From an uncultured Verrucomicrobiales bacterium (GTDB lineage Bacteria; Verrucomicrobiota; Verrucomicrobiia; Verrucomicrobiales; Akkermansiaceae), in assembly GCA_937934595.1 (NCBI GenBank), contig CALGZA010000107.1:1-43112 (forward strand): a stretch of DNA of 43,112 bases, in the 5' to 3' direction. Shown piece after piece: positions 4,662-43,112 of this stretch (position 1 is the stretch's first letter; every line of letters begins with the position of its first letter). A model generated the notes under the pieces. The model had not been told where the DNA came from, searched no databases, and saw nothing but the letters and a program-made list of their open reading frames with translations. A program made the position numbers and the translations under genes.

Positions 4662-5636
4662 ATGGCTATCCTAGAAGTCTCAAACCTCACCACCAGATTC
4701 CACACCAGAAACGGTATCGTGCACGCCGTCGAAGATGTCTCTTTCTCAGTGGATAAAGGTGAAACTCTTGGTATAGTCGGTGAGTCAGGTTCAGGTAAGT
4801 CGGTGAGCTGCTACTCCCTCCTCGGACTCATCCCCACCCCTCCAGGAAAAATCCACTCAGGGAAAGCCATATTTGACGGCTCAGACCTCATCCAAGCCAG
4901 CGCCAGCCAACTACGTAAAATCCGCGGCAAACGAGTATCCATGATCTTCCAAGACCCCATGACCTCGTTAAACCCATACCTCAAGATCTCCACTCAGCTC
5001 ACCGAACCACTAGCAATCCATGAAGGAATCAAAGGCAAAGCAGCACTCCACAAAGCCATCGACGCTCTCGCTGAAGTAGGCATTCCAGAACCCGAAAAAA
5101 GAATCCAGTCCTACCCTCACGAGTTCTCAGGAGGTATGCGCCAGCGCGTCATGATCGCCATGGCCCTCATCACCAGACCAGAGCTCCTCATCTGTGACGA
5201 GCCTACCACTGCACTCGATGTCACCGTTCAAAAACAAGTCCTAGATCTCATAAAAGATAGACAAAATGAGCTCGGCACAGCTGTCATATTAGTCACCCAC
5301 GACCTAGCAGTAGTCAAACAAACGTGTGATAAAGTCAACGTCATGTACTCAGGCAGAATCGTCGAAAGTGCTCCAGCTAACGCCCTTTTCGCAAACCCAA
5401 TGCACGCCTACACCAGAGCCCTCCTTCAGTCTATCCCTGCCACTCATAAGAAAGGCGAAGAGCTATTTACCATACCTGGCCTGCCTCCAGTCCTCACTTC
5501 ACCACCTAAAGGTTGCGCATTCTCGCCAAGAAACACCCTCGGAAACAAAGAACTCTGTATCCAAGACCACCACCCCAAACTCGTGGAAAAAACCCCACAG
5601 CACTTCGTCCAGGACTGCGAAGGCTGCCTCTGCTAA
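4662..5636 (+). CDS. Peptide ABC transporter ATP-binding protein (OppD/DppD type)
   Basis: This 324-residue cytoplasmic ATPase would power a dipeptide/oligopeptide or nickel-type importer. It shows Walker A GESGSGKS (40-47), the Q-loop Gln at about 97, signature FSGGMRQRV (155-163), Walker B LLICDEP (175-181) and an H-loop THD. The C-terminal 90 residues are the oligopeptide/dipeptide transporter C-domain with GLPP, GCAFSPR and a Cys-containing tail. Its length fits OppD/DppD. No permease, binding protein or second ATPase (OppF) is adjacent, so in this window it is an orphan and its partners must be elsewhere. The downstream PhoD-like gene is 30 bp away and may be co-transcribed. Confidence 0.92.
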
Positions 5637-5666
5637 CCCCAAACCATGCTCCCTCAACTTAAAAGC

Positions 5667-6713
5667 ATGAAAAACATCTTCATCATCCTCACTCTCTGCG
5701 CATCAATCGTCGCAGCAAAAGAACCCCCCTCTCAACAATCAAATACAAACACCACCCTCACAAGAATAGCCTGCGGATCCTGCTTCAAACCAAACTACCG
5801 CACTGCCAATAAAATCTGGCAAACCATCGCCTCCACAAAACCTCAAATCTTCCTATTCATGGGAGACAACATCTACGGAGACACCCATGACATGGACGTC
5901 TTACGCGCCAAATACAAAGCACTTACAGAACTTCCCGAATACGCCAAATTCTCGAAACAACACAAAATCATCCCAACCTGGGACGACCACGACTACGGCA
6001 AAAACGATGCCGGTGCAGAATACCCACAAAAAGCCCAATCACAAAAAATCTTCCTAGACACTTTCGGATTCCCTCATAACCACCCCGCAAGAAAACGCAA
6101 AGGAATCTACCATACTCACACCCAAGGAAAAACTGGACAACTCACTCAAATCATCAACCTAGATACCCGCTACCACCGCAGCCCACTCGATCGCAGAAAA
6201 GTCGGTAGACGCAAAAAATACTTCCCCATCACAGACCCTAAAGCAACCATACTAGGAACCGAACAATGGAAATGGCTAGAAGCACAGCTACTCAAACCCG
6301 CAGACCTACGCATCATCGTCTCCAGTATCCAAATCATCTCCAAAGAACACATCTACGAAAAATGGGAAAATATCCCAGCAGAAAGAACCCGCTTCATCCA
6401 GCTACTCAAGAAATCAAACGTAAAACGCCTCATCCTCCTCAGCGGTGACCGCCACCTAGCTGAACTTTCTAAACTCACCCCAAAAGAAACAGGGCTCAAT
6501 TTCAACCTTATAGAAATGACATCCAGTGGACTCACTCATGCCGGTGCCCCAAGAGCTAAAAACCAACACCGCATCCCAGGAAGCTACTCAAATAAAATCA
6601 ACTTCGGCACCTTAGAAATCGACTGGTCAAACAAAATCCCCACCGTCACCCTATCCATACGTGACAGAAATGCCAAAGCCATCAGCACAACCACAACCAA
6701 CTTCAAAGAATAA
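5667..6713 (+). CDS. PhoD-like metallophosphatase, secreted
   Basis: I chose the start at 5667 (348 residues) because it gives a clean Sec signal peptide (MKNIFIILTLCASIVAA). The frame itself opens at 5646. Motifs follow the PhoD/alkaline phosphatase D fold: GSCFKPNY, MGDNIYGDT with metal-binding Asp and Asn, TWDDHDYGKNDAG, and late in the protein SGDRHLAEL with a metal-binding His. The Ca/Fe-dependent members cleave phosphodiesters and phosphomonoesters outside the inner membrane. The N-terminal beta domain of Bacillus PhoD is absent, as in many short bacterial relatives. The substrate cannot be read from sequence. Lys, Thr, His and Asn are abundant, as expected from the C/A-rich coding strand. 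Confidence 0.87.
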   Translation: MKNIFIILTLCASIVAAKEPPSQQSNTNTTLTRIACGSCFKPNYRTANKIWQTIASTKPQIFLFMGDNIYGDTHDMDVLRAKYKALTELPEYAKFSKQHKIIPTWDDHDYGKNDAGAEYPQKAQSQKIFLDTFGFPHNHPARKRKGIYHTHTQGKTGQLTQIINLDTRYHRSPLDRRKVGRRKKYFPITDPKATILGTEQWKWLEAQLLKPADLRIIVSSIQIISKEHIYEKWENIPAERTRFIQLLKKSNVKRLILLSGDRHLAELSKLTPKETGLNFNLIEMTSSGLTHAGAPRAKNQHRIPGSYSNKINFGTLEIDWSNKIPTVTLSIRDRNAKAISTTTTNFKE

Positions 6714-6989
6714 AAGAACAATCTATCCCCCTCCACTAAATCAATACAGAAAAATACCAATATCACCTCTCTTTCCATCTAATACCATTTGAACTGTTAG
6801 AATGGATTGATAGCACAACAAGATAGCAAGAGTAGCAAGGCAAGAGGAAAGCGAATAGTGGTCTATGCATCTGACAAATAACGAAGCTAATCTTGATAGA
6901 TTGTTTTGCTCTTCAAAAAATCAGCTCTGCTGCTCCCAAATGTATTAAAACCACTATCAACCCATAATAACTGTAAAAAACGAGTAACT
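6714..6989. other. Non-coding gap between convergent genes
   Basis: This stretch is AT-rich and lies between the PhoD-like gene and the clpC terminator. I find no open frame with support, no tRNA fold, and no clear terminator for the plus-strand gene. Confidence 0.5.
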
Positions 6990-7026
6990 AACAAATAAAA
7001 AAGCCACTCAACTCAATGAGTGACTT
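6990..7026 (-). terminator. Rho-independent terminator of mcsA-mcsB-clpC
   Basis: A 10-bp stem, aagccactca (7001-7010) with tgagtgactt (7017-7026), contains one G-U pair and a 6-base loop. On the minus strand it runs into a T-rich tract. It lies 25 bases past the clpC stop. Confidence 0.8.
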
Positions 7027-7051
7027 AAGATCAAATAAACGTAAACCTCCC

Positions 7052-9580
7052 CTAACTAGAAGACGCTTTCTCGTCAGATTTAGGTTTCCGCTTTAAAGGC
7101 TTGAAAATTAATTCATCCCCACCCTTCTTACGACTAACCTTCACATTATCCCCCTCCTTCACCTCACCTCTGAGTAACGCTTCCGCCAAAGGATCTTCCA
7201 TAAATCTCTCAACAGCACGCCTCATAGGTCTCGCTCCATACTTAGGATCATGCCCCTTCTCAACCAAAAGATCACGAGCAGCCTTATCGAGCTTAATCGT
7301 GATAGACTTCTGCTCAAGCCTCTCATAGAGCTTACTACACTCAAGATCCACAATAACATCGAGATCCTTCTTCTCAAGCGAATGGAAGACAACAAGCTCA
7401 TCAAGCCTATTCAAAAACTCCGGCTTGAAAAACTTACCAGACTCTTCCAAGGTCTTACTCTTCATACCCTCGTAATCCGCCTCATCCTCACTCATCGCAC
7501 CAAAGCCAAGTGCCGACTGTCGCTTCACTGTCGATGCCCCCACATTGGATGTTAAAATAATAATCGTATTTCTGAAATCAATCTTCCTTCCAAAACTATC
7601 CGTAACCATACCCTCCTCAAGAATCTGTAGTAACAAATTCATCACATCAGGGTGCGCTTTCTCAATCTCATCAAAAAGTATCACTGAATACGGCCTGCGT
7701 CTAACAGCTTCAGAAAGCTGACCACCTTCCTCATACCCCACATACCCCGGAGGTGATCCTATCAACCGACTCGTCGAAAACTTCTCCATATACTCAGACA
7801 TGTCGATCTGTATCAAAGAGTCCGTATCACCAAACATGAATTCCGCCAAGTTGCGAGCTAGATAGGTCTTACCCACTCCAGTAGGCCCCAAGAACAAAAA
7901 TGAACCAATAGGACGTCGTGGATCTTTCAAATCAGCACGTGACCTCCTCAAAGCCTTACTAATAGCTATCACCGCCTCATCCTGCCCTACAACCCGTGAC
8001 TTCAAGTCCTCTTCCATCTTGAGCAGTTTCTCAGCCTCTTTCTCCTCCATGCGCTGAAGAGGTATACCAGTCCACTTAGACACTACTGTCATAATGTCAT
8101 CTTCATTCACCTCTATGACACTCTCATCACTCTCTGTCTTCCAGTCAGATAAAATATCCTCTAACTTCTGCTTCGCCTTCTTCTCCTCATCCCTACATGA
8201 TGCAGCCTTCTCAAAGTCCTGCTCATCTATCGCTCCCACCTTCGCCTTATTGATAACCTGGATCTCAGCCTCTAGCTCCTTCAGCTCAGGCGGTCGCGTC
8301 ATCTGACTAATACGCGCCCTTGAACCAGCCTCATCTAATACATCAATTGCCTTGTCCGGAAGAAATCTACCAGTCAAATAACGAGATGATAACTTCACTG
8401 ACGCCTCCAGTGCATCCTCAGTATACCGCGCCTTATGATGACTCTCATACTTCTCTCGTAATCCTTGAAGGATCTTAACCGTATCTTCCTGTGTAGGTTC
8501 CTCCACCCTCACCTGCTGAAATCGTCTCTCTAACGCTGAATCTTTCTCTATAAATTTCCTATACTCATTCAGTGTAGTAGCACCCACACACTGCAACTCA
8601 GAACGACTCAACGCTGGCTTAATTATGTTAGAAGCATCCATCGCTCCCTCGGCAGATCCAGCTCCCACAATAGTATGAAGCTCGTCAATAAAGAGAATAA
8701 CATCCCCCACCTTCTTAATTTCATCCATCACAGCCTTGATACGCTCCTCAAACTGCCCCCTATACTTAGTTCCCGCCACCATCAGAGCAAGATCCAGTGT
8801 CACCACCTTCTTATCTCGCAACAACTCAGGAACATTTCCAGATACAATCTCCTGTGCTAAACCCTCAATAATTGCCGTTTTACCTACTCCCGCCTCACCT
8901 ACAAGCACCGGATTATTCTTAGTCCGTCGACAAAGAATCTGGATCACACGCTCAGTCTCTGACTGCCTTCCTATAACCGGATCAAGCTTACCCTCTCTCG
9001 CTACCTTGGTAAGATCTCTACCAAATGCCTTCAAAGCTGGTGTCTTTGTCTTATCCTTACCATCAGACCCTTCTTCATCATCGGAATCATCAGATTCATC
9101 TTCAAACGCCTCAAAAATATCCTCATCATTATCATCAGGATCAAAATTAGGATCAATTTCAGCCAAAACCTCCTGACGTGTCGTCTGAATACTTATATTT
9201 AAACTATTTAATACACGTGCAGCCACACCCTCACCTTCATGCAGCAAACCCAGTAAAAGATGCTCAGTCCCTACATAAGAATGATTTAGTTGCTTCGCCT
9301 CCTTGTCCGCTAAACTAAGAACCTTCTTCACACGCGGAGTATAAGGAATCTGTCCAGATATCGTCTGATCCGGTCCCTTACCTACCTGCTTCTCCACCTC
9401 AACTCGCACAGTCTCTAACTGAAGTCCCATCTTCTCTAAAACATTCACAGCCACACCCTGACCTAGCTTTATAAGACCCAGTAGCACATGCTCAGTGCCT
9501 ACGTAATTGTGATTAAAGCGCTCTGCTTCCTTCCTGGCTAACGCCAATACCTGCTGTGCTCTCGGAGTGAAATTATTCAT
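7052..9580 (-). CDS. clpC: ATP-dependent Clp protease ATPase subunit ClpC
   Basis: ClpC unfolds proteins and feeds them to ClpP; with McsB it degrades arginine-phosphorylated substrates. The 842 residues contain two N-terminal Clp repeats (about 1-70 and 80-145), AAA1 with Walker A GEAGVGKT (228-235) and Walker B VILFIDE (294-300), a middle domain with a UVR motif (about 452-475), and AAA2 with Walker A GPTGVGKT (565-572). A Leu-Gly-Phe loop for ClpP docking follows in AAA2. Odd point: residues 147-172 between N-domain and AAA1 are a long, almost purely acidic linker not found in Bacillus ClpC. The gene is last in the mcsA-mcsB-clpC operon, 6 bp after mcsB, and ends at a terminator. No clpP is in the window. 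Confidence 0.96.
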
Positions 9581-32807: not shown

Positions 32808-33089
32808 ATGATTACAAAACGCATTATCTTCGAAGGTCGTGTCCAAGGAGTCGGATTCCGCTACGCCACACGCCAAATCGCTCTCGGATTCGATGTCATG
32901 GGATGGGTCAAAAACCTACCAGATGGCTCCGTCGAACTCGTCATTGAAGGTGAAAAACAAGAAGTCACCGAGTTCATCGAAGAAATAACCGAAGAATCAA
33001 CACTAGCCCACCACATCAAAAACCACACACAAGAAGACATCCCTACACTAGAAAACTGCCAAGGCTTCACCATCACGAAGAATGCTTAA
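32808..33089 (+). CDS. acyP: Acylphosphatase
   Basis: A small cytosolic enzyme that hydrolyses carboxyl-phosphate bonds such as acetyl phosphate and 1,3-bisphosphoglycerate. The 93 residues include the signature GRVQGVGFRYATR, where the second Arg is catalytic, and GWVKNLPDGSVELVIEG, where Asn is catalytic. Length and motifs are standard for the family. The 3' end overlaps the end of the convergent hrpA gene by 17 bp. There is no Shine-Dalgarno before the ATG. It is a single gene with no linked partner. Confidence 0.93.
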   Translation: MITKRIIFEGRVQGVGFRYATRQIALGFDVMGWVKNLPDGSVELVIEGEKQEVTEFIEEITEESTLAHHIKNHTQEDIPTLENCQGFTITKNA

Positions 33090-36000
33090 CCAAACCGCAT
33101 GCAGCCATCGCCTCCCCAAGCTTCTTCTCACTCACAGCCCCCTTCTGAGCAATCACAGGCGCCAAACAACTCAACCTAAAACCCTCTAACAAATAACCTA
33201 AAGCAATCAGCCCACCATCCTCCATCCTGCCCTTCCACACATTCTCCCAAGGAACCAAATAATCATGCACCAAATCCATCTTCTCTAAATCCTTAACCAA
33301 AGGCAGTGAAGACAACCTCTTTATCCTCTCCAGCATCCCCTCGAAATACCGTGGATACATCTGCATCCCCTGCCACCCCACCTGCTTCATAAAACCCTTC
33401 CTTAGCAACCAATCCAACTGCCCCCTCAGATCAAACACAACTTCCTCCAAATGCGAATCATTCTTATTCTTAATCAAGAAATCCTCCACCTCCCGAGACA
33501 AATCTATCACCTTACCCAAAATCTCTCCCAACCTCTCCAGACATACGTAAAGCTCACCCCTGCCATCATCACTTCGCTTCCTATAAACTGCTTCTCCCCT
33601 AGGAAAACCACCACCAAAAACACCCTCCACTGCACACCCCAACAATTCAGCCAGATTCACACCACCACCCAAATGAGGCAAATACAACCTCACATCCATA
33701 GATACAGGTATATGCTTCATCACATATTTAATATGATCCACATGCTCTAACAAAAACAACCTAACACAACCAGCTCTGTGACTCCACTCAGCCTCCCAGT
33801 CAGTCAAATAAACTTTCACCCCCACAGCATCACCCTCATCCACTAACGCAGGATAAGCACACTTACCTCTCAGCTCTATCTCCTCAGGAAGATCACCACA
33901 ATCCCAGCCTAACAAACCGCTCATCTCCCACTCAGCTCCACTCTCCCTCTCAAACCTCTCATCTAACAAACCACCAAGCTTCACCCTAAGATCAGCTACA
34001 CTCTTCCCCATACCCAGCTCATTCCCCTCATCATCACACACCCATATCTTAGTCTGCATCTCCTCTGGTAACCTACCAGCATCAAACATCCCAGCCTCTA
34101 TACCCAAACCAGTCCGCTCAGACAAAAACACCGCTAAAACCTCTAACAAAACACCCTCACCAAAACACCCCATACCTCCACCTCTACCCAGACAAGCCAC
34201 AAATTCCTTCGCCGTCGCCCCCGCAGGATTACAAGCCACCCTCTGCCCCTTTGGCAAACTACGGATCAACAGAAATACCCTCTCCTCAAGCATCCCCTCC
34301 ACACCCCAACCAGCCAGTGACTCACTCATCCCTAACAGCTGATCCACATGCACCCCTATCGTCACCCCATCATCCACATCCCCAGGCGCCACCCTATAAT
34401 ACAAAGGATACTCCTCCTCACCATCCCTCACCACACTCGGATAACCAGCCAACTCATACTGAAGCTCAGTAACATCATCATACATCACATCACCCATCTC
34501 TAACATCACCTCACCACCATGCTCTCCCTCCCACTTATTAAACGCCTTAGCCGTATATATCTCCTTCGGAATCCTCGCCTCAAAAAAGTCTAACACCTTC
34601 TCATCACTCCACACCCCTCCCACTCGCCGTAACCTCTGCTCCATATCAACCACCTTAGCACGCAACGAAGCCAACCTCCCCAAACACTTCGGCGTCCTAT
34701 GCAAGCCATCCCCTAACAAACCCTCCCTCAAGAAAATCGACCAAGTAGCACCAGGATCTATCCTCCCAAAATGCACTCGCCTATCATCCACTATCATCAG
34801 CGGACCAAACATAACCACCTCCTTCGCATACACCGCACCCTGCTTCTTATCCCACTTCGCACTATGATACCTATACCTACATAAATCAGGAACAACATCC
34901 TCCAGCCACTTCGGATCAATACTCGCCACACGCCGCGCCCATAACCGAGACGTATCCACCATATCATATGCCAACAACCACTCCGGCTTCTTCTGACCAA
35001 ACATCCCACTACCAGGAAAAATTGCAAACTCACGCGCACTCACACCCTTATAAGCCCTCTCCTCCTTATCATACTTACCCACCTGACGCGGCATCCCCAT
35101 CAGCAGCGCCTTATGCAGCACCTCATGACTCGCCCACCCACGCATCTCTCCCAGCTCACCACGTATCACTCTCCCAGACACCTTCACCTGCCTCAACTCC
35201 GCATGCAGATTCCCCCACTCCATCACCCGCCTAAAATTCAAATAACTCCGCTTGCAAAACTTCCTCAGCTTATTCCTCTGCCACCCCCTCTTCTCCCTAA
35301 ACTCACTCACATCACTCCACATATGCAACAGAGACGTAAAGTCAGACTCCTCATCATCCCATCTCTTATGCGCCTCATCAGCCTCCCTCTGCCTGTCTGC
35401 CGGTCGCTCCCTCGGATCCATAACACTCAGACCACTCACTATCACCAGCATCTCCTCATAACACCCAACCCTAACAGACTCTAACAACATCCGTGCCAAC
35501 CTAGGCTCCACAGGAACCCTCGCTATCGTCCTCCCCACACTAGTCAACCCATCCTCATCATCAAGCGCACCTATCTCCCTCAGCGTCCTATACCCCTCAG
35601 AAACATGCTTCGATGAAGGTGGATTCAAAAAAGGAAAATCCTCAATCTCAGGCAACCCCAAAAACTTCATCCGCAAAATAACCCCAGCCAATGAACTACG
35701 CTTTATCTCAGGATCAGTAAACTCCTCTCGCTCCTCAAAATCCTCCTCACCATACAACCTATAACAAACACCCTCAGAAACCCTTCCACACCTACCCTTT
35801 CGCTGCCTCGCACTAGCCTGACTTATCTTCTCCACCTGCAGCCGCTGCACCTGCCTACTCGGATTCCACCTACTCACCCTTGCCACCCCAGTATCCACCA
35901 CGTAAACAATCCCAGGAATCGTCAACGAAGTCTCAGCCACATTCGTCGCCATCACCACACGCCGCACCCCAGGAATCGTAGTAAAAACCCTCTGCTGCTC

Positions 36001-36834
36001 AGCCATCCCCATCCGCGCATACAAAGGCAACACCTCAGTCCGCGCCAGCCCTCGACCCTCCAAAACCTCAGCACACTCACGGATCTCCCTCTCACCAGGT
36101 AAAAAAACCAACACGTCTCCCATCCCACCCTCACTAATCTCACCCACACACCGCACCACACAACGCGCCATATCCTCATCCTCACGCATCTCCATATAAC
36201 GCGTCTCCACCGGAAACGTCCGCCCCTCCACATCTATCACCGGAACCCCCTCACCAAAAAAATCCGCAAACCCACCAGAATCCATCGTAGCCGATGAAAT
36301 AATCACCCTCAAATCATCACGCTCAGACAGCAACCCCTTCAAATAACCCAACAAAAAATCAATATTCAAACTCCGCTCATGAGCCTCATCAATAATAATC
36401 ACACCATACCCACCCAATCTAACATCCCCCTGAGTCTCCGCCAGAAGAATCCCATCCGTCATAAACTTCAACACCGTATTCTTACCACAAGCATCATCAA
36501 ACCTAACCTGATACCCCACCTCCTCACCTATCTTCACTCCCAGCTCATCAGCCACACGCTTAGCCACACTCGCCGCAGCTATCCTCCTCGGCTGAGTACA
36601 ACCCACCAACTTCTCACGCCCACCACTACCACCTCTACCACCTCTACCACCACTACCACCAGAAACCTCACGCAGATACTCCAGCGCCATCTTCGGCAGC
36701 TGAGTCGTCTTCCCACTCCCCGTATCACCCACCACCACTACAACCTGATGATCCCTCAGCGCAGAAATCACCTCATCCCTCGCCCCACTAACAGGCAAAT
36801 CCGGATAACTAAATGTCCTCTCTTCCTCCATCAC
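33073..36834 (-). CDS. hrpA: ATP-dependent RNA helicase HrpA (DEAH-box)
   Basis: A 1253-residue helicase of the HrpA type. The core has Walker A GDTGSGKT (36-43), DEAH (149-152), the SAT motif ISSATMDS, the VVMATNVAETSLTIPGI motif and QRKGRCGRV. A helicase-associated domain and a long DUF3418-type C-terminal half follow; E. coli HrpA is about 1300 residues. HrpA rescues stalled ribosomes and remodels mRNA in E. coli. Odd point: a Gly/Ser/Arg run at 59-72, made of GGS and GGR units, is inserted just after the Walker A helix. It is encoded by a 9-bp tandem repeat (36621-36660). Gly, Val, Glu and Arg are greatly enriched, as expected from the G-rich minus strand. A Met follows the first Met, so the start could be 36831. 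Confidence 0.93.
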   Translation of the reverse strand: MMEEERTFSYPDLPVSGARDEVISALRDHQVVVVVGDTGSGKTTQLPKMALEYLREVSGGSGGRGGRGGSGGREKLVGCTQPRRIAAASVAKRVADELGVKIGEEVGYQVRFDDACGKNTVLKFMTDGILLAETQGDVRLGGYGVIIIDEAHERSLNIDFLLGYLKGLLSERDDLRVIISSATMDSGGFADFFGEGVPVIDVEGRTFPVETRYMEMREDEDMARCVVRCVGEISEGGMGDVLVFLPGEREIRECAEVLEGRGLARTEVLPLYARMGMAEQQRVFTTIPGVRRVVMATNVAETSLTIPGIVYVVDTGVARVSRWNPSRQVQRLQVEKISQASARQRKGRCGRVSEGVCYRLYGEEDFEEREEFTDPEIKRSSLAGVILRMKFLGLPEIEDFPFLNPPSSKHVSEGYRTLREIGALDDEDGLTSVGRTIARVPVEPRLARMLLESVRVGCYEEMLVIVSGLSVMDPRERPADRQREADEAHKRWDDEESDFTSLLHMWSDVSEFREKRGWQRNKLRKFCKRSYLNFRRVMEWGNLHAELRQVKVSGRVIRGELGEMRGWASHEVLHKALLMGMPRQVGKYDKEERAYKGVSAREFAIFPGSGMFGQKKPEWLLAYDMVDTSRLWARRVASIDPKWLEDVVPDLCRYRYHSAKWDKKQGAVYAKEVVMFGPLMIVDDRRVHFGRIDPGATWSIFLREGLLGDGLHRTPKCLGRLASLRAKVVDMEQRLRRVGGVWSDEKVLDFFEARIPKEIYTAKAFNKWEGEHGGEVMLEMGDVMYDDVTELQYELAGYPSVVRDGEEEYPLYYRVAPGDVDDGVTIGVHVDQLLGMSESLAGWGVEGMLEERVFLLIRSLPKGQRVACNPAGATAKEFVACLGRGGGMGCFGEGVLLEVLAVFLSERTGLGIEAGMFDAGRLPEEMQTKIWVCDDEGNELGMGKSVADLRVKLGGLLDERFERESGAEWEMSGLLGWDCGDLPEEIELRGKCAYPALVDEGDAVGVKVYLTDWEAEWSHRAGCVRLFLLEHVDHIKYVMKHIPVSMDVRLYLPHLGGGVNLAELLGCAVEGVFGGGFPRGEAVYRKRSDDGRGELYVCLERLGEILGKVIDLSREVEDFLIKNKNDSHLEEVVFDLRGQLDWLLRKGFMKQVGWQGMQMYPRYFEGMLERIKRLSSLPLVKDLEKMDLVHDYLVPWENVWKGRMEDGGLIALGYLLEGFRLSCLAPVIAQKGAVSEKKLGEAMAACGLVKHSS

Positions 36835-36975
36835 TCTCTAATCAATAACCTAAAATCTAATAAAAAACCGAACAAATGAACCCTCACTCATCCTCACACA
36901 AAAACAACTAAACCACCATCACCACAAGTAAAGAGCAACCAACAGAAAAATCAAACCAACCACCATCCCAAACCC

Positions 36976-37063
36976 AAAACCCCAAAACTCCAAAACTACA
37001 AAACTCCAAAACTCCAAAACTCCAAAACTCCAAAACTCCAAAACTCCAAAACTCCAAAACTAC
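36976..37063. repeat. Tandem array of an 8-bp unit, 11 copies
   Basis: Eleven consecutive 8-base units of aaaactcc run without gaps. The first (aaaacccc), third and last (aaaactac) are variants and the other eight are identical. A run of 8 C (37065-37072) follows, and the hsdR stop codon is at 37075. The array fills part of the non-coding gap between hrpA and hsdR. Such arrays vary in copy number. Confidence 0.95.
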
Positions 37064-37074
37064 ACCCCCCCCAT

Positions 37075-40000
37075 TCAACGATACTGCTTAAAGTTCTCCG
37101 CCTGCTCAAAGATCTCTTTATAAACCTCATCCCTATCCACTGGTGGATAACCGTTATGTGCTAACAGAATGATGAGATCCACTTTCAGCTCAGCCTTAAT
37201 ATCATCGCGCTGACTCCAGTCTGTATACTTAGTCTTATCATCGACCACAGACTTCACCTCCTTAGCAAGATGAATAAGTTTATCCTCGGGATAATCAAAG
37301 TCGTATTTATGAGCTAGGGATTTGAGAATGTCGTAGAAGGACTTCTCTTCCAGATCGATCCCCATCTCGCCAAAAGACTCCTTCTCCTTTTGCAGCGCGT
37401 GAAACAGCTCGATCATCTCTTCGGGAATGGTTTCAAGAAAGGTGCTATCGAGAACGTCTTTCTCGTCCCGTTCGTTGTACTTTTGCACGAGCGCCTGGAA
37501 CTGTTTGCTGAAATCAACACCCTTGATCTTGTTGACCTTCTTGAAGTCCTCGATGGCGCGTTTGAGCAGTTGCTGGAGTAGCTTGATCTTGGTGTTGGGC
37601 AGTTTGACCTTCTCGATCTTGGCAAGATAGTCGTCACCGAAGATGTCGATCTCGGTCGCGCCGTCTTCGCCGAGCTTAAAAATCTCTTCGATCCCATCGC
37701 TTTGCAAGGCCTCTGAAATCATATCCCGCACCTTGGCATTCATCTGGGCGCTGTCCGGTGCCTCGCCTTTAGTCAGCTTGGCGATGATGGAACGCACGGC
37801 GAGGTAGAAGTGGATGTGGTCGCGCTCGGACTGGGTGAAAACTTCCGAGCCACAGCAAATGTCGTAGGCCGCTTTGAGGCGCTTCACCAGAGCCATGACC
37901 CGATTCTCGATCTTGTCGGCACGCTGGACGAATTCGGCTGCCTGGTTCAGGCATTGCAGTTGCTCGACCGGAGATCCAATGAAGTAGGGCCTAGTGTCAA
38001 ACTGATGGAAGATCCGCCCCAGCAGATCGAGGTGGTCCCGCACCACGATGATGGAGGCCTCGATCTCTTCGATGTTGCTGCTGTCCGCCTTCGAGTAGTG
38101 CGCCAGCGCAAGATTCATCTGCTTCTTGATGCCGATGTAGTCGACAACCAGTCCCTTCTTCTTGTTCTCAAACTTCCGGTTCACCCGCGAGATGGTCTGG
38201 ATCAGGTTGTGCCGCTGGACCGGCTTGTCGATGTAGATCGTATCTAGGAAGGGCACGTCAAAGCCCGTCAGCCACATGTCCACCACAATGGCGATCTTGA
38301 AGTTGGATTCCGCCTTCTTGAACTGAGTATCGAACTTCTTGCGCTCGTCCTTATTACCGAGCATGTCGTAGAGCCCCTTCTCGTCGTCCTTGCCCCGCGT
38401 CATCACCATCTTGATGCGCTCCATAGCCAGGATTTCCTTCTTCTGCTGATCGCTCAGCTCCACGCCCTCGGCACAGACCCGCACCTCCGCCCACCCCGGA
38501 CGCAGCGCGATGACCTGCTTGTAGAAATCATAGGCAATCTGCCGGCTGCTGCTGACAAAAATCGCCTTACCCGCCACCGTGGAGCCTTCGTCGACGCGCT
38601 TCTCGTAGTGCGCCACAAAATCCGCCGCCAACGCCTCAATGCGTTGCGGGTCGCCGAGGATGGCACCCATACTGGCCATCGTCTTCTTACTGTCTTCGAT
38701 GGCATAATCACTAGATCCCGCCTCCGCACATTCACTATAATAACTCTCTATCTCCTCCAGCTTCCCGTTATCGAGAATCACCTTAGCAGCCCTCCCCTCG
38801 TAAACGATCGGCACAGTTATCTCATCCACTACCGACTCGGTCATCGTGTAGCTGTCCACCACCTCACCAAAGACATCAAGCGTAGCATCGATCGGAGTAC
38901 CAGTGAAACCAACATAGGTCGCGTTCGGCAGCGAGTCGTGCAGATACTTGGCAAAGCCAAAAGTCCGCTTCACCCCGTCTTCCGTAATCTTGAGCTTCTG
39001 GTCCAGATTCACCTGACTGCGGTGCGCCTCGTCGGAAATACAGATCACATTGGTGCGCTCCGTCAGCAGCTCAGTGTCCTCAGTGAATTTATGAATCGTG
39101 GTGAGAAAAACCCCGCCGCTGTTGCGCCCCTTCAACAGCTCACGCAGGTGATCGCGGCTCTCCACACTGACCACCGTCTCATCGCCGATGTAGCCCTTGC
39201 CATTGGTGAATAAGCCCGAGAGCTGATCATCCAGATCCGTGCGGTCGGTGATCAGGACAATGGTCGGGCTGGAGAGATCCACGCTCTTCATCAGCAGCCG
39301 TGCCAGAAACAACATGGTGTAGCTCTTGCCGCAGCCCGTCGCCCCAAAGTAGGTACCGCCCTTGCCATCGCCTTCCGGCTTCATGTGCGAAAGGATGTTC
39401 CGATACAGCTTCGTCGCCGCGTAGTATTGTGGATAGCGGCAAACTATTTTTTCTTCACGGCGCGATGTATCCGGGAAATAAATAAAATTGCGGATGACAT
39501 CCAACAGCCGCTTCTGGTGAAAGAGCCCCTGGATCATGGTATAGAGCGAGTTGATCCCGTCCTTCTCGGTGAAGTCACTACCGTCTGTCTTGCGCCAGGC
39601 ATAGAAAAATTCGTAAGGCGCGAAAAGGGAGCCGACCTTGTTGTTCACCCCGTCCGAGATGACCGTCAGCGCATTGTATTTTAGAAGCTCCGGAATATCG
39701 CGGCAGTAGCGGTTTGTCACCTGCTTAAAGGCTTCATGGATGTTTACCTCCTCGCGGATCGCGCTCTTAAATTCAAAGACAACAAGGGGCAACCCGTTAA
39801 TGTAGAGAATGCCGTCAGGGATGCGCTTCTCGCTGCCAGTAATTTCCAGCTGGTTGACGATCTTGAAAATATTCTGGGAGAACGTAGCTCCAGCTGCGTT
39901 ATACTCCACCTCTTCCTCTGCAACAATAGAAGTCAACTGATCCGGTGTCGGCTCGCGAAACGCCACCAGCTCCGAGTAATCGATCAATTGGATATACAGG

Positions 40001-40302
40001 TCCTTCTGGCTGCGGTCTTCCCGCTTCAGCAGAAAGCCATCCGAGACCAGCTTCATGATGGCCTTGTTGCTCGCGTAAAGGTCGGCCGCCGAATAGGATT
40101 CAAGTTGTTTGATCACCGCCTCTATTTCTTGCGAGGTAATCTTGTCGCCTGCGTATTGCTTAGAGAGGAAAGTCCGCAGGTCGTCTTTGATGAGAACCTC
40201 ATTAGGTTCACGATCAATCGCCTCGCCCAAGACATGCCGATAGCCCTCCTTACCGAGGAGTTCGATGATGGCTGATTCGAGTTGGGCTTCCGTGAATTTC
40301 AT
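37075..40302 (-). CDS. hsdR: Type I restriction enzyme subunit R (HsdR)
   Basis: The motor-nuclease subunit of a type I restriction system: it translocates and cuts DNA that lacks the partner methylase's mark. The 1075 residues show an N-terminal nuclease with PDG (Asp163) and FEFK (Glu177, Lys179), a Gln/Tyr pair (194, 199), Walker A GATGCGKS (320-327), DEAH in CISDEAHRSQ (424-427), FTGTPI, and a RecA2 half with RVNRKFENK. Length and order match family HsdR (about 1000-1100). The companion hsdM and hsdS are not seen and would lie right of the window. It follows the Fic gene by 22 bp on one strand. C and G are balanced here, unlike the backbone, so the gene is probably foreign. Confidence 0.95.
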   Translation of the reverse strand: MKFTEAQLESAIIELLGKEGYRHVLGEAIDREPNEVLIKDDLRTFLSKQYAGDKITSQEIEAVIKQLESYSAADLYASNKAIMKLVSDGFLLKREDRSQKDLYIQLIDYSELVAFREPTPDQLTSIVAEEEVEYNAAGATFSQNIFKIVNQLEITGSEKRIPDGILYINGLPLVVFEFKSAIREEVNIHEAFKQVTNRYCRDIPELLKYNALTVISDGVNNKVGSLFAPYEFFYAWRKTDGSDFTEKDGINSLYTMIQGLFHQKRLLDVIRNFIYFPDTSRREEKIVCRYPQYYAATKLYRNILSHMKPEGDGKGGTYFGATGCGKSYTMLFLARLLMKSVDLSSPTIVLITDRTDLDDQLSGLFTNGKGYIGDETVVSVESRDHLRELLKGRNSGGVFLTTIHKFTEDTELLTERTNVICISDEAHRSQVNLDQKLKITEDGVKRTFGFAKYLHDSLPNATYVGFTGTPIDATLDVFGEVVDSYTMTESVVDEITVPIVYEGRAAKVILDNGKLEEIESYYSECAEAGSSDYAIEDSKKTMASMGAILGDPQRIEALAADFVAHYEKRVDEGSTVAGKAIFVSSSRQIAYDFYKQVIALRPGWAEVRVCAEGVELSDQQKKEILAMERIKMVMTRGKDDEKGLYDMLGNKDERKKFDTQFKKAESNFKIAIVVDMWLTGFDVPFLDTIYIDKPVQRHNLIQTISRVNRKFENKKKGLVVDYIGIKKQMNLALAHYSKADSSNIEEIEASIIVVRDHLDLLGRIFHQFDTRPYFIGSPVEQLQCLNQAAEFVQRADKIENRVMALVKRLKAAYDICCGSEVFTQSERDHIHFYLAVRSIIAKLTKGEAPDSAQMNAKVRDMISEALQSDGIEEIFKLGEDGATEIDIFGDDYLAKIEKVKLPNTKIKLLQQLLKRAIEDFKKVNKIKGVDFSKQFQALVQKYNERDEKDVLDSTFLETIPEEMIELFHALQKEKESFGEMGIDLEEKSFYDILKSLAHKYDFDYPEDKLIHLAKEVKSVVDDKTKYTDWSQRDDIKAELKVDLIILLAHNGYPPVDRDEVYKEIFEQAENFKQYR

Positions 40303-40324
40303 GAATGATTGGAGTAGATTATTT

Positions 40325-41419
40325 CTAAGACGGATCAGACTCGTTTAGCAGAAGGGTTAAGTAACTTTTATGGATGAAGAGCTTTTCTCTGCCTACTTTT
40401 TCTTCCTCAAGTAATCCTAGATTAACGAGCAAGTGAAGGTAAGTGGAGGCTGCTTGACGTTTTGCTACACCAGCTTCCACGAGGTCTTGAATGCGGCAGT
40501 AGGGTTGACTGAAGAGCACGTCGAGAAGTTCTGCGGAATAGATTTTCGAGGCATTTTCCTTGAGCCATGCTTTGGTGTTGCGTTTTAGATCACGGATTTC
40601 TGTGATTTTGTGGTTCGTCCAGAGAGCGGCCTCTTCCACGGTTTCGAGGATATAGAGAATCCAGCTTTGCCAATCTCCGGTGCGTGTGACCCCATTGAGG
40701 TTCTGGTAGTATTCTGCCTTCCGTTTGATAATACTGCGGCTGTGGTAAAGGATTGGAGTTTCGAGTAAGCCTGCGGAAATGAGGTAAAGTAGATTGAGCA
40801 CCCTCCCCGTTCTGCCATTACCATCGGTAAATGGATGAATGGCTTCAAATTGATAGTGGGAAACAGCCATGACCACCAATGGATCGAGCTCGGATTCTTG
40901 GTTATGAATGAATGTTTCCCAATTGGCTAGTTTCTCGCGGAGAAGATCTTCGCCTACAGGTGGTGTATAGATTGTTTCTCCAGTTGAGTCATTTTGCAGT
41001 GTGGTGCCAGGCACTTGGCGAACCCTCATTTCAGACTTCTTGATTTCACTGCAGATTTGTTCAGCTGTATTGGTACAGAGCGGAGTCGTCTCTAAGCTGC
41101 GATAGCCAGCGTAGAGAGCATGTCGGTAGTTCATTGCCTCCTTGGTCGCGGGATCAAAGCTCGTGCCAGTCAGCGAGCTTCTAAATAAGCTATCCGTCGT
41201 AGTGACGATGTTCTCAATTTCAGAACTTGCCTTAGCTTCTAGAAGCGGGAGAATATTGATGAGTAACGATTGATTCGGGAGAAAACCTGCCGCCTGATTG
41301 AGGTTGGCGAGTGCTGTTCTTGATTTTATACACTGCTTCAGCACTGGCACGGTTTCTAGCTCCGCTGCAGGGGGCAGGAGAGGTAGGTCATTGTATGCAA
41401 GTGCTGGATCCCAGGTCAT
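40325..41419 (-). CDS. Fic-domain protein with built-in inhibitory helix (class II)
   Basis: Fic enzymes transfer AMP (or related groups) to proteins. I chose the ATG at 41419 (364 residues); a TTG at 41452 would add 11 residues. The family layout is complete: a Fic N-domain with the inhibitory motif SSEIEN (65-70; S/TxxxEG/N form), then the active-site loop HPFTDGNGRTGR (195-206), all invariant residues kept, and a C-terminal winged-helix-like end. The inhibitory helix before the Fic core marks class II, so it is probably self-inhibited until triggered. It precedes hsdR by 22 bp and lies 166 bp after an hsdR fragment. Fic genes inside type I restriction loci are known; what it modifies is not. 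The upstream gap carries repeated elements. Confidence 0.93.
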   Translation of the reverse strand: MTWDPALAYNDLPLLPPAAELETVPVLKQCIKSRTALANLNQAAGFLPNQSLLINILPLLEAKASSEIENIVTTTDSLFRSSLTGTSFDPATKEAMNYRHALYAGYRSLETTPLCTNTAEQICSEIKKSEMRVRQVPGTTLQNDSTGETIYTPPVGEDLLREKLANWETFIHNQESELDPLVVMAVSHYQFEAIHPFTDGNGRTGRVLNLLYLISAGLLETPILYHSRSIIKRKAEYYQNLNGVTRTGDWQSWILYILETVEEAALWTNHKITEIRDLKRNTKAWLKENASKIYSAELLDVLFSQPYCRIQDLVEAGVAKRQAASTYLHLLVNLGLLEEEKVGREKLFIHKSYLTLLLNESDPS

Positions 41420-41433
41420 GATGATTAAATTAA

Positions 41434-41555
41434 ATTTTATCGACAGGTTCAATCAATAGGTCGATGACGTAGACATGTCAATGAAACATGTCTTCATTTT
41501 TTGATTTTATCGACATATTTGAAAAATGTGTCGATATCTTTAATGTTTATCGACT
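41434..41555 (-). promoter_or_regulatory. Repeated control region of the Fic-hsdR unit
   Basis: The gap before the Fic gene holds a perfect 12-bp direct repeat, attttatcgaca, at 41434-41445 and 41504-41515, with a related tgtttatcgact at 41544-41555. A perfect inverted repeat, agacatgt (41471-41478) with acatgtct (41486-41493), lies between the first two. Further GTCGAT half-sites occur at 41460 and 41530. Such clustering in 120 bases fits operator sites for a regulator of the Fic and hsdR genes; the factor is unknown. Confidence 0.5.
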
Positions 41556-41564
41556 CGTCGAAAA

Positions 41565-41816
41565 CTTCATGATCGCCTTCTTGCTCTAGTAGAGATCAGC
41601 GGCGGAGTAGGCTTCAAGCCGGTTGATGACCGCTTCGATTTCCTGCGGTGTGATATGGTCCGCCGCATACTGCTTGGCGAGGAAGGTTCGCAGGTCGGCC
41701 TTGATGAGCACCTCTTGCGGCTGGCGCTCAATCGCCTCGCCCAAGACGTGCGGGTAGCCCTCGGCTCCGAGGAGTTCGATGATGGCTGATTCGAGTTGGG
41801 CTTCGGTGAATTTCAT
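41565..41816 (-). pseudogene. hsdR fragment (first about 84 codons), cut off
   Basis: The ATG at 41816 opens a 76-residue frame that matches residues 1-76 of the full HsdR at about 63 of 76 positions by hand count (MKFTEAQLESAIIELLG is identical). At the codon where HsdR has Ala77 there is a TAG. The match then resumes for seven more codons (SKKAIMK against SNKAIMK) and stops near 41565. The gene is therefore a remnant, not a short functional protein. It starts 4 bp after the stop of the AAA-DUF4435 gene, the place where an intact hsdR might be expected. It probably marks the break-point where the Fic-hsdR unit entered. Confidence 0.85.
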
Positions 41817-41820
41817 TGCG

Positions 41821-43112
41821 TTATGAAGATGGCGCCGGACTCTCGATAGCCCCCGTTTCAGATTTTAAGCTTGTAAAGGTTTCTACAAGACAAGTTGGGA
41901 TTAATGCAGAAAATTTATTGGTCTGGTAGTCTATATACTTCGTACTTGTTCCATCGGTTCCGATGATTTTCCCGGTTTCTCTGATAAAAGGGATTTTATT
42001 TAACTTTTCTCCAATCTTTTCTTGTAAGGTATGACCACGTTCAAGTTGCCACTCTTCAGAAATATCAATTTTTAGCCCCCCAATATAGCGGACGCCAATT
42101 TTGGTTTGTTGCGGGAGATCAAGTAGCCTTTCTAGTTCTCCGATCATAAGTTCAAGTATTTCGGCTGTTTCTTGCAAAAGATTGGCAGATGTTTGAGATG
42201 TGTTGGTCCACATTTCAAAAAGGCTAGCACCACCATTATCCACAAGAATTGCGAGTAGCGTAAGAGGATCTAGTAAGTAATTTTCTAAAGCACTTCTTTT
42301 TATAACCGTTACATTTTCTGAGGCCGTATTTGCATCTTGTCTAGGATCCCAATCGATTAGCCCTCTGAATTTCGATAGATTTAGATCTGATAGCTTTTCG
42401 GCCCATTGCTTAGCTTGTGCACAGCCACCGCCCACACCAGAGTTTGCTTTATTGCTGGCTGGGATAAAGCGCAAAGCAGGGCTGCTTGGTATCAGTTCTA
42501 ACTGAACTAATCGATTATGAACCTTTTGGTAGTAATTTGCATCGTCAATAGCTTCACAAATTATAATTTGGTCATCGGGAAAGACTGAGAGAAAGCCAGA
42601 TGAAAGTATTGATGAAGCTGTAGATGATGAAATTTTACGTAGCTCTTTGTTAACTCGGGTAAGCTCAAATATTTCAGCCCCGGAACTTTCAGCCAAAGCA
42701 ACTGTGCTAGGTGAGTGAGTTGCAAGAACTATTTTTATTCCCTGATCTACAAAATTTTCCTTTAATATTTGCAGAACTATTTTTGTGAATGATGGGTGTA
42801 GGTGTGCATCAATCTCATCAAGTAGAAGTATTTTGGGTAGATGCTTTATTCCATCCTTTAAGGTAGCTTGATAACGCAAAGAAAAGAGAGCTAGTAACCC
42901 GCGTTCTCCCGAAGACAATTCTTTAATTGCTACTTCGTCTCCTGATTCCTTATCAATTAGCCTTAGCTGATATGCTCCACTAAGATCGAATACTGTGCCT
43001 GAAGGTCGGTTAAATTTATAGGGGAGCTCTGCATCCTCTAGGATTTTGTTGGCCGTATCCCAAGGCTCATAACCATGATTTTCATAAAATTTTTCATCGC
43101 TTTCATATTCGA
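41821..43112 (-). CDS. AAA ATPase fused to DUF4435/TOPRIM-like domain (PARIS-like; N-terminus outside window)
   Basis: The frame is open to the window edge, so the N-terminus with Walker A is missing; about 429 residues are visible (the TTG at 42918 is not the start). The first visible part ends the ATPase: ELSSGERGLLAL (signature), KILLLDEIDAHLHP (Walker B) and VLATHSP (switch His). Then DDQIIICEAIDDANYYQKV and RGLIDWD give the Glu and DxD of a TOPRIM-type metal site, and SALENYLLDP matches the ENYLL motif of DUF4435. AAA plus DUF4435 is the pairing of AriA and AriB in the PARIS anti-phage system, including single-chain forms. It abuts the hsdR fragment (4 bp). Alternatives are an OLD-like nuclease or a generic restriction-linked ATPase. 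Family assignment is from motif memory, not a search. Confidence 0.72.
   Translation of the reverse strand, partial: EYESDEKFYENHGYEPWDTANKILEDAELPYKFNRPSGTVFDLSGAYQLRLIDKESGDEVAIKELSSGERGLLALFSLRYQATLKDGIKHLPKILLLDEIDAHLHPSFTKIVLQILKENFVDQGIKIVLATHSPSTVALAESSGAEIFELTRVNKELRKISSSTASSILSSGFLSVFPDDQIIICEAIDDANYYQKVHNRLVQLELIPSSPALRFIPASNKANSGVGGGCAQAKQWAEKLSDLNLSKFRGLIDWDPRQDANTASENVTVIKRSALENYLLDPLTLLAILVDNGGASLFEMWTNTSQTSANLLQETAEILELMIGELERLLDLPQQTKIGVRYIGGLKIDISEEWQLERGHTLQEKIGEKLNKIPFIRETGKIIGTDGTSTKYIDYQTNKFSALIPTCLVETFTSLKSETGAIESPAPSS

What the first reader, a model, noticed from the sequence alone, without database searches (positions are those of the whole stretch)
37075..43112. PARIS-like AAA-DUF4435 fusion, Fic protein and HsdR in one defence operon
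Going down the minus strand, four coding units lie in one direction: an AAA ATPase whose C-terminal part has the Glu, DxD and ENYLL marks of DUF4435, an hsdR remnant, a self-inhibited Fic protein, and HsdR. It is established that PARIS (AriA ATPase plus AriB DUF4435 nuclease) is triggered by anti-restriction proteins such as Ocr. A PARIS-like protein inside a type I restriction locus would guard the very system such proteins block. The Fic protein could be a third layer, silenced by its own inhibitory helix. I have not seen this exact combination described.
Basis: partly seen in the sequence, partly recalled or inferred. Interest (0 to 1): 0.82.

Follow-up and report, generated by a model that had tools for sequence, protein, structure and literature searches.

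The report
Layered defence locus with hsdR scars
This bacterial locus stacks a PARIS-like alarm protein and a Fic toxin beside a restriction enzyme, and the broken restriction-gene stub between them turns out to be a recurring scar that suggests how such bacteria add new anti-virus genes.

Summary
On the minus strand lie the 3' part of an ATPase-nuclease fusion (cut by the contig end), a 252-bp hsdR 5' stub, a SoFic-type Fic gene and a complete hsdR. The fusion is PARIS-like: its ATPase half matches AriA, its C half folded alone matches AriB best (Z 12.5 and 11.3; next family 7.3), though Pfam DUF4435 does not hit it. Its two closest full-length relatives have Walker A and sit behind hsdS. No HsdM was found in this assembly, so a working type I system is unproven. 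Fused AriAB, SoFic and defence genes between hsdS and hsdR are in print. The stub is the less expected part: in this hsdR family I found 24 such 5' stubs in 19 genomes, 19 of them within 30 nt of an upstream gene's stop, 16 of those genes of known or candidate defence families. Two mirror cases put a 3' stub on the far side of an insert. Best explanation: defence genes arrive joined to a piece of an hsd gene, recombine there by homology and break illegitimately at the other end, leaving the resident gene's end as a scar. Joint function is untested.

The parts
41821..43110 (-). PARIS-like (AriAB-type) ATPase-nuclease fusion, 3' part only (429 aa); N-terminus lies beyond the contig end
   Evidence: AAA_21 52.7 bits and AAA_15 38.5 bits, both over cut-off; PADLOC AriAB fusion model 62.7 bits; full-length relatives L002/L004 (57%) and L003/L006 (38%) carry GxNGSGKTHLLEA
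41824..42660 (-). C-terminal AriB-like domain of the fusion, residues 151-429
   Evidence: model pLDDT 85.7, pTM 0.81; best structural matches 8ux9_A Z 12.5 and 8v46_D Z 11.3, chains of PARIS complexes taken as AriB by their length (305-306 residues; AriA chains are 464), next OLD nuclease 7.3; AriAB model 27.2 bits and AriB 16.3 bits on this half alone
41565..41816 (-). hsdR 5' scar: codons 1-84 of a second hsdR allele, in-frame TAG at codon 77, 4 nt behind the fusion gene's stop
   Evidence: 252 nt at 80% to the hsdR start; 90% DNA identity over 225 nt to a stub in G008 and 89% to the R. persicicus full hsdR, against 80% to the window's own hsdR; position
41420..41564 (-). Fic leader with repeated TATCGAC-type motifs; the part next to the gene is shared with Fic genes in three other genomes; likely its own promoter/operator region (inference)
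   Evidence: alignment of WIN, G005, G011, G051 leaders; repeats D6 and D7
40325..41419 (-). SoFic-type Fic protein, class II self-inhibited AMPylase with a SoFic-like C-terminal domain
   Evidence: NCBIfam NF046030 559.4 bits (cut-off 550); PADLOC SoFic 375 bits; motifs
37075..40302 (-). HsdR, type I restriction subunit, complete
   Evidence: T1RH-like_C, SWI2_SNF2, HSDR_N, T1R_D3-like; PADLOC REase_I 1305 bits

Best explanation
The locus is a type I restriction operon that has accreted defence genes. What each part most likely does: the fusion is a PARIS-like sensor and effector (AriA-type ATPase that holds an AriB-type nuclease until a phage protein is sensed), plausibly a guard of the restriction system; the Fic protein is an independent, self-inhibited AMPylating toxin of the SoFic kind; HsdR is the restriction motor and nuclease. 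How it was put together: the Fic gene arrived as DNA already joined to the 5' part of another hsdR allele. That DNA recombined with the resident hsdR by homology on its right side and joined by illegitimate recombination inside the resident hsdR on its left side. The resident hsdR start was left behind the fusion gene as a dead 84-codon stub. Shown: the gene order, the folds, the stub, its recurrence and two mirror cases. Inferred: the order of events, the recombination route, and all functions.
For: 24 hsdR 5' stubs in 19 genomes of the phylum (list and count; found), five of 6-13 codons found only by a pattern scan of loci already fetched. 19 of 24 begin within 30 nt of an upstream gene's stop, 14 with an exact 4-nt overlap. 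Of those 19 genes 16 belong to known or candidate defence families: AriAB-like, FRG, DUF3644, TIR, AbiEii, RhuM, AAA_13, DUF4268 (10 scored with PADLOC; 6 by Pfam or close homology). Break points differ (6 to 202 codons). Of 14 loci with a whole-length hsdR and at least two upstream genes in view, 9 hold a stub; the seven found by searches that could also see 3' pieces are all 5' pieces. Mirrors: G307 hsdR C-terminus, AbiEi, AbiEii, then an hsdR 3' stub; G005 hsdM, RhuM, hsdM 3' stub, hsdS. Other genes hit show 5' stubs too: RhuM in G033, abiEi before Fic in G005. 5 of 7 stubs resemble a copy in another genome more than their own hsdR, as best of many. G101: stub 92% to the G008 stub but 68% to its own hsdR start, and its hsdR body is close to G137 (199/243 fourfold sites) while its start is not (4/16). 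One junction (G240) lies inside a 23S_rRNA_IVP-like gene with a shared AGC. One stub lies in a single-contig genome (G624). One-sided recombination of this kind is known (PMC3240628, start of abstract).
Against: The window's own HsdR shows no mosaic break against R. persicicus (46/88 versus 129/223 fourfold sites, p 0.38). In G005 and G470 the stub is most like its own hsdR (89% and 81%), as a local duplication would give, and in G139 the margin is 2 points. 5 of 14 loci have no stub, and the simple uninserted order exists too (Klebsiella plasmid). Isolated 3' pieces of hsdR occur elsewhere in the order (G307, G210, G346, G383 and G275 among loci fetched), so general decay also happens. Donor upstream sequence is not known, so the left joint of the window cannot be read for microhomology.
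Confidence: 0.6

Rival explanations
1. Local tandem duplication and decay: hsdR (with an inserted gene) was duplicated in place, and the first copy then eroded to its 5' end.
For: In G005 and G470 the stub is closest to its own hsdR; isolated hsdR fragments show that decay happens.
Against: In 5 of 7 cases the stub is closer to some copy in another genome than to its own hsdR; the G307 3' stub is 82% to its own hsdR, no more than to G304 or G682 (83-84%). Erosion should leave 3' or internal pieces as often as 5' pieces; the seven two-sided finds beside whole hsdR genes are all 5'.
Confidence: 0.15
2. Integrase-free cassette array: each defence gene plus an hsdR 5' repeat moves as a circle or fragment and enters or leaves by a single homologous crossover between hsdR repeats, so the locus is a living exchange array.
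For: Gives exactly gene-stub-gene-hsdR; two stubs each in G008, G299, G240, G275; gene-stub units with no hsd gene in the fetched stretch in G653 and G669.
Against: Stub and downstream hsdR start within one locus are 70-90% alike over 84 nt in the 7 pairs compared, no sign of homogenisation; no circle or excised state was seen; left ends vary.
Confidence: 0.15
3. A site-specific mobile element (for example a RAYT or REP element, or a 23S_rRNA_IVP element with its hairpin) drives the insertions and hsdR is only its usual target.
For: Y1_Tnp domains sit in frame in RhuM of G101 and HsdR of G304 and G005; three tiny stubs precede a four-helix/23S_rRNA_IVP-like gene with a hairpin-like stretch between.
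Against: Pfam typing of the inserts shows no recombinase besides the Y1_Tnp in G101; break points in hsdR differ. REP/RAYT content was not surveyed systematically.
Confidence: 0.08
4. One reading: one co-adapted operon in which the PARIS-like protein guards the type I enzyme and Fic is a third, coupled layer.
For: The fusion sits directly behind hsdS in two type I loci with diverged hsdM (29% over part of the protein) and different gene order (L004 and L006); in G299 and G240 an AAA_13 ATPase fills the slot behind hsdS; PARIS senses an anti-restriction protein and PrrC guards a type I enzyme (PMC12707154, passages).
Against: Fic and the fusion are separated by a scar and at the locus each occurs without the other (G005; G033); Fic has its own leader; only 3 of 36 loci of fusion relatives have hsdS next to it; the AAA_13 protein of G240 scores best to the candidate family PDC-S06 and only weakly to PrrC (47.8 bits); no function was tested.
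Confidence: 0.3

Closest known systems
PARIS, fused AriAB form (Rousset et al. 2022, PMC9122126, passages read)
   Same: AAA_21/AAA_15 ATPase joined to an AriB-like nuclease domain in one protein; fold of both halves
   Different: Pfam DUF4435 does not hit the window protein; relatives sit behind hsdS in a type I operon; trigger and target unknown
SoFic (PMC12249575, passages read)
   Same: class II Fic, inhibitory motif, SoFic C-terminal domain, NCBIfam equivalog score over cut-off
   Different: only 22 bp separate it from hsdR, so no AS1-like gene lies directly behind it; placed in front of hsdR with a scar before it
Defence genes embedded between hsdS and hsdR, e.g. DarTG2 in the RRDM island (PMC12255303, passages read)
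   Same: same position in a type I operon; that paper calls the site a potential recombination hotspot
   Different: the passages I read do not mention hsdR stubs; here the stubs give a physical record of the insertions
PrrC-EcoprrI and RloC (PMC12707154, passages read)
   Same: accessory nuclease; PrrC is encoded inside a type I locus and reacts when restriction is blocked
   Different: different protein family; here a PARIS-like fusion fills that place
Homology-facilitated illegitimate recombination (PMC3240628, start of abstract only)
   Same: one homologous end, one illegitimate end
   Different: reported there as a DNA-uptake or conjugation outcome; here inferred as a repeated natural route for defence genes

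Membership tests
PARIS (AriAB fusion) | AAA_15 or AAA_21 ATPase domain | tested here: met
   AAA_21 52.7 bits (cut-off 27), AAA_15 38.5 (cut-off 32.1)
PARIS (AriAB fusion) | Walker A in the N-terminal part | not testable with these tools
   lies beyond the contig end; present in relatives L002 and L003
PARIS (AriAB fusion) | Pfam DUF4435 (PF14491) match | tested here: not met
   no match in the window protein or the assembly; 6 of 31 aligned sequences match at E<=0.1, best 6.1e-6
PARIS (AriAB fusion) | match to the ATPase+DUF4435 fusion profile (published cut-off 20 bits for the AAA_21 form; whether PADLOC's model is that one was not checked) | tested here: met
   62.7 bits whole, 27.2 bits for the C half alone (rule read in PMC9122126)
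PARIS (AriAB fusion) | AriB fold of the effector domain | tested here: met
   Z 12.5 to 8ux9_A over 202 residues, rmsd 4.2; Z 11.3 to 8v46_D; next family 7.3; Foldseek best 8v46_D, E 1.2e-3. That these chains are AriB is inferred from their length and the entries' titles
PARIS (AriAB fusion) | triggered by an anti-restriction protein such as Ocr; cuts tRNA | not testable with these tools
   needs experiment
SoFic | SoFic family score and domain set | tested here: met
   NF046030 559.4 bits (cut-off 550); Fic_N, Fic, SoFic-like_C
SoFic | Fic active motif and N-terminal inhibitory motif | tested here: met
   HPFTDGNGRTGR at 195, SSEIEN at 65 (motif rules recalled)
Type I restriction-modification system | HsdR with nuclease, motor and C-terminal domains | tested here: met
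   TIGR00348 468.8 bits, cut-off 284.55
Type I restriction-modification system | HsdM and HsdS in the locus | tested here: inconclusive
   N6_Mtase 0 matches in the assembly, but the contig ends inside the fusion gene; HsdS was not searched in the assembly; in relatives hsdM and hsdS lie upstream

The most novel reading that the evidence does not exclude
Ends of hsd genes act as shared recombination handles, so that type I loci in this phylum work as an integrase-free exchange array: unrelated defence genes (AriAB-like, SoFic, AbiE, RhuM, TIR, Septu, AAA_13) are traded between species joined to a piece of hsdR, and the stubs are a readable layer-by-layer record of past acquisitions.
Probability: 0.3. 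Interest if true: 0.75.

Novelty: new variant of a known kind. Interest (0 to 1): 0.58.

Why it matters
Defence genes are known to gather inside restriction loci, but how they get in is mostly unknown. If stubs mark the joints, the route, direction and order of acquisition can be read from sequence alone, and stubs become a search handle: whatever lies between a stub and an hsd gene is a candidate defence gene. The PARIS-like fusion directly behind hsdS also gives natural pairs in which to test whether PARIS-type proteins guard type I enzymes.

Tried and rejected
Rejected: the stub as a chance match or lone pseudogene (similar stubs in 18 other genomes). Rejected: the stub as assembly error (one stub lies in a single-contig genome, G624; in the 7 pairs compared, stub and own hsdR differ by 10-30%). 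Rejected: Fic and the PARIS-like gene as a fixed pair (at the locus each is found without the other). Considered and left: the stub as an expressed peptide or translation leader; several contain stops and sizes run from 6 to 202 codons. Considered and dropped: a claim that the window HsdR is mosaic (no break against G033).

Led nowhere: profile of the C domain against PDB sequences gave 0 hits at E<=10; a search for a paper holding PARIS, DUF4435 and 'type I restriction' together gave 0, which says little as many papers are not held. Literature on hsdR stubs: listings and passages of PMC12255303 and PMC12707154 showed none; rlo genes: listing only. Plasmid records: 8 of 72,556 hold this hsdR start, each at one place (very short stubs would be missed). 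In the structural second look of the full-length model only residues 1-408 were well tested, hence the separate C-domain model. The promoter scan gave one weak match in 41380-41830, so the Fic promoter is an inference.

Rows left out of the count of 14 loci: G137, G038, G667, G191, G172, G307, G367 (hsdR cut by a contig end), G463 (hsdR broken after codon 408), G531 (one upstream gene in view), G149 and other hsdR of under 60% identity, and hits never fetched (of: G547, G596, G574, G415, G480, G454, G144; the weak ones near 30%). G139 is counted though its hsdR is split into two frames. G613 (internal piece at a contig end) is not counted as a stub. The G428 stub outside an hsd locus starts at residue 3-4, not 1. 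Of the isolated C-terminal pieces, seven loci were fetched.
Full report
What is there. The window is one whole contig, C107 of a 3.15-Mb assembly in 123 contigs. On the minus strand, going left from the contig end, lie the 3' part of an ATPase fusion (41821-43110), an hsdR 5' stub (41565-41816), a 145-bp leader, a Fic gene (40325-41419) and hsdR (37075-40302), then hrpA (33073-36834).

The ATPase fusion. The held 429 residues score over the curated cut-offs for AAA_21 and AAA_15 but do not match Pfam DUF4435 (also 0 matches in the assembly). Two full-length relatives in the same family of genomes, Roseibacillus persicicus (57%) and Luteolibacter pohnpeiensis (38%), begin with a Walker A (GVNGSGKTHLLEA, GKNGSGKTHLLEA) (names). 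Among PADLOC models the fused AriAB model is best (62.7 bits), and the C half alone still gives it 27.2 bits and AriB 16.3. Of 31 aligned sequences 6 match DUF4435 weakly (best 6.1e-6). Eleven columns of the C domain are invariant, among them E, D, DxD, R, E and DP. A model of the R. persicicus protein (pLDDT 83) matches SMC heads, PtuA and AriA (8ux9_B, Z 13.2) over residues 1-408. The window C domain folded alone (pLDDT 85.7, pTM 0.81) matches chains of two PARIS structures at Z 12.5 and 11.3, then OLD nucleases at 7.3 and below; I take these chains as AriB from their length (305-306 residues, AriA is 464). So it is a diverged PARIS-like fusion by profile and fold; the Pfam family match fails.

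Its setting. I surveyed 36 loci that encode full or partial relatives. By my searches hsdS lies directly upstream in three, all Verrucomicrobia: L004, L005 (with a broken fusion) and L006. L032 has an hsdR-like ORF about 4.5 kb away on the other strand. The other 32 show no hsd gene, but several of these stretches are short. L004 and L006 differ in gene order and hsdM (29% over part of the protein), so the link arose twice or was carried over. In G299 and G240 the gene behind hsdS is an AAA_13 ATPase, the Pfam family I recall for PrrC and RloC; but the G240 protein scores best to the candidate family PDC-S06 and only weakly to PrrC. This fits a guard role for the slot but does not prove it. 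In this assembly HsdM is not found (0 matches with N6_Mtase), so whether a working type I system exists here is open.

The Fic gene. It is a SoFic by NCBIfam (559.4 bits, cut-off 550) and PADLOC, with active and inhibitory motifs. Its leader, rich in TATCGAC-type repeats, is partly shared with Fic genes in G005, G011 and G051. I infer an own promoter and perhaps autoregulation. In G005, same genus, an 89% identical Fic also sits directly before hsdR, without the PARIS-like gene.

The stub. It starts at the hsdR ATG, 4 nt behind the fusion gene's stop, and follows hsdR to codon 84, with a stop at codon 77. It is 80% identical in DNA to the window's own hsdR start, but 89% to the R. persicicus hsdR and 90% to a stub in G008 (225 nt). 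It is therefore a different hsdR allele, not a recent copy of the neighbour.

The stub recurs. Searches with the hsdR N-terminus in 386 genomes of the order and 387 of the phylum (the samples overlap), with maps of fetched loci, give 24 isolated 5' stubs in 19 genomes (counted): window, G033, G183, G101, G005, G008 (2), G024, G139, G299 (2), G240 (2), G275 (2), G116, G346, G223, G624, G653, G669, G428 (2) and G470. Lengths run from 6 to 202 codons. Five of 6-13 codons came only from a pattern scan of fetched loci. 19 of the 24 begin within 30 nt of the stop of an upstream gene of 100 aa or more, 14 of them with an exact 4-nt overlap; the other five are 87-231 nt away or have no such gene within 400 nt. 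Of these 19 upstream genes 16 belong to known or candidate defence families: AriAB-like (3), FRG, DUF3644, TIR, RhuM (2), AAA_13 (2), AbiEii (5), DUF4268; ten were scored with PADLOC, six typed by Pfam or close homology. The remaining three are two AlbA_2 proteins and a kinase-like protein. Several loci are layered: G008 has hsdS, ATPase and PtuB-like HNH, stub, TIR, stub, AbiEi-AbiEii; G033 has hsdS, fusion, hsdR stub, RhuM stub, AlbA_2, hsdR. Of 14 loci with a whole-length hsdR and at least two upstream genes in view, 9 have a stub and 5 (G304, G682, G520, G630, G560) have none.

Polarity and mirrors. Beside whole-length hsdR genes, the seven stubs found by searches that could also see 3' pieces are all 5' ends. 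As a control I searched 386 genomes with the hsdR C-terminus: isolated 3' pieces do exist (G307, G210, G346, G383, G275 among fetched loci), so hsdR also decays. One of them is the mirror image: in G307 the order is hsdR C-terminus (running in from the contig end), AbiEi, AbiEii, hsdR 3' stub, and that stub is only 82% identical to its own hsdR. In G005 RhuM lies behind hsdM and is followed by a 3' stub of hsdM, then hsdS. In each case the whole gene lies on one side of the insert and the stub of that gene on the far side.

How it probably happened. DNA that carries a defence gene joined to one end of an hsd gene enters, pairs with the resident hsd gene and crosses over there; the other end joins illegitimately, often inside the resident gene or an older accessory gene, and cuts it to a stub. 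Support: 5 of 7 stubs resemble some copy in another genome more than their own hsdR (the best of many others against one; margin only 2 points in G139); G005 and G470 do not. In G101 the stub is 92% like the G008 stub while its own hsdR start is only 68% like it, and the hsdR body matches G137 at 199 of 243 fourfold sites against 4 of 16 in the N-terminal part (p 3e-6). Window against G101 shows the same (26/76 against 135/225, p 1e-4), but window against G033 does not (46/88 against 129/223, p 0.38). One junction, in G240, runs from hsdR codon 11 straight into the middle of a 23S_rRNA_IVP-like gene with a shared AGC. Such one-sided recombination is known from competent bacteria and conjugation (PMC3240628, start of abstract in listing).

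Relation to what is known. Fused AriAB is in print (PMC9122126, passages), as are SoFic (PMC12249575, passages) and defence genes between hsdS and hsdR, a site called a potential recombination hotspot (PMC12255303, passages). Three listings and these passages showed no mention of hsdR stubs as scars; a preprint on embedded defences cited there (Payne et al. 2024) is not held, so I cannot exclude that it treats them.

Verdict. Observation confirmed; interpretation partly supported. The PARIS-like fusion and SoFic are diverged members or look-alikes of known kinds. The scars are, as far as I could check, a new and testable feature of type I loci in this phylum. They were tested for one hsdR family only; 8 plasmid records with this hsdR start showed none.

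Noticed in passing
L200:769-4425 (-), L199:4034-7807 (-), L198:1547-5233 (+): HsdR of G520, G470 and G531 carries a DUF559 domain in frame between HSDR_N and the motor, so these HsdR may have two nuclease-like domains.
   Followed up: partly
L167:11428-15309 (+), L123:4529-8527 (-), L122:5876-7708 (-): A Y1_Tnp (RAYT-like) transposase domain lies in frame inside HsdR of G304 and G005 (residues about 730-850), and in the C-terminal half of a RhuM protein in G101; reading frames stay open.
   Followed up: partly
window 36950-37072: Tandem array of an 8-bp unit (CCAAAACT) between hrpA and hsdR.
   Followed up: no
window 33073-36834; L167:1726-5436: A HrpA helicase gene lies next to the type I locus in the window (downstream of hsdR) and, judged from its N-terminal sequence only, in G304 (upstream of hsdM).
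   Followed up: no
L192:1812-3657, L193 (reverse strand): AbiEi-AbiEii pairs followed by an hsdR stub with no hsd gene in the fetched stretch (G653, G669): either decayed loci or units that moved with an hsdR tail.
   Followed up: partly
L196 (G667) oriented 5602-8056: A partial four-helix/23S_rRNA_IVP-like match followed by a second, fuller copy, and a short RhuM piece followed by a RhuM gene: tandem accessory-gene remnants.
   Followed up: no
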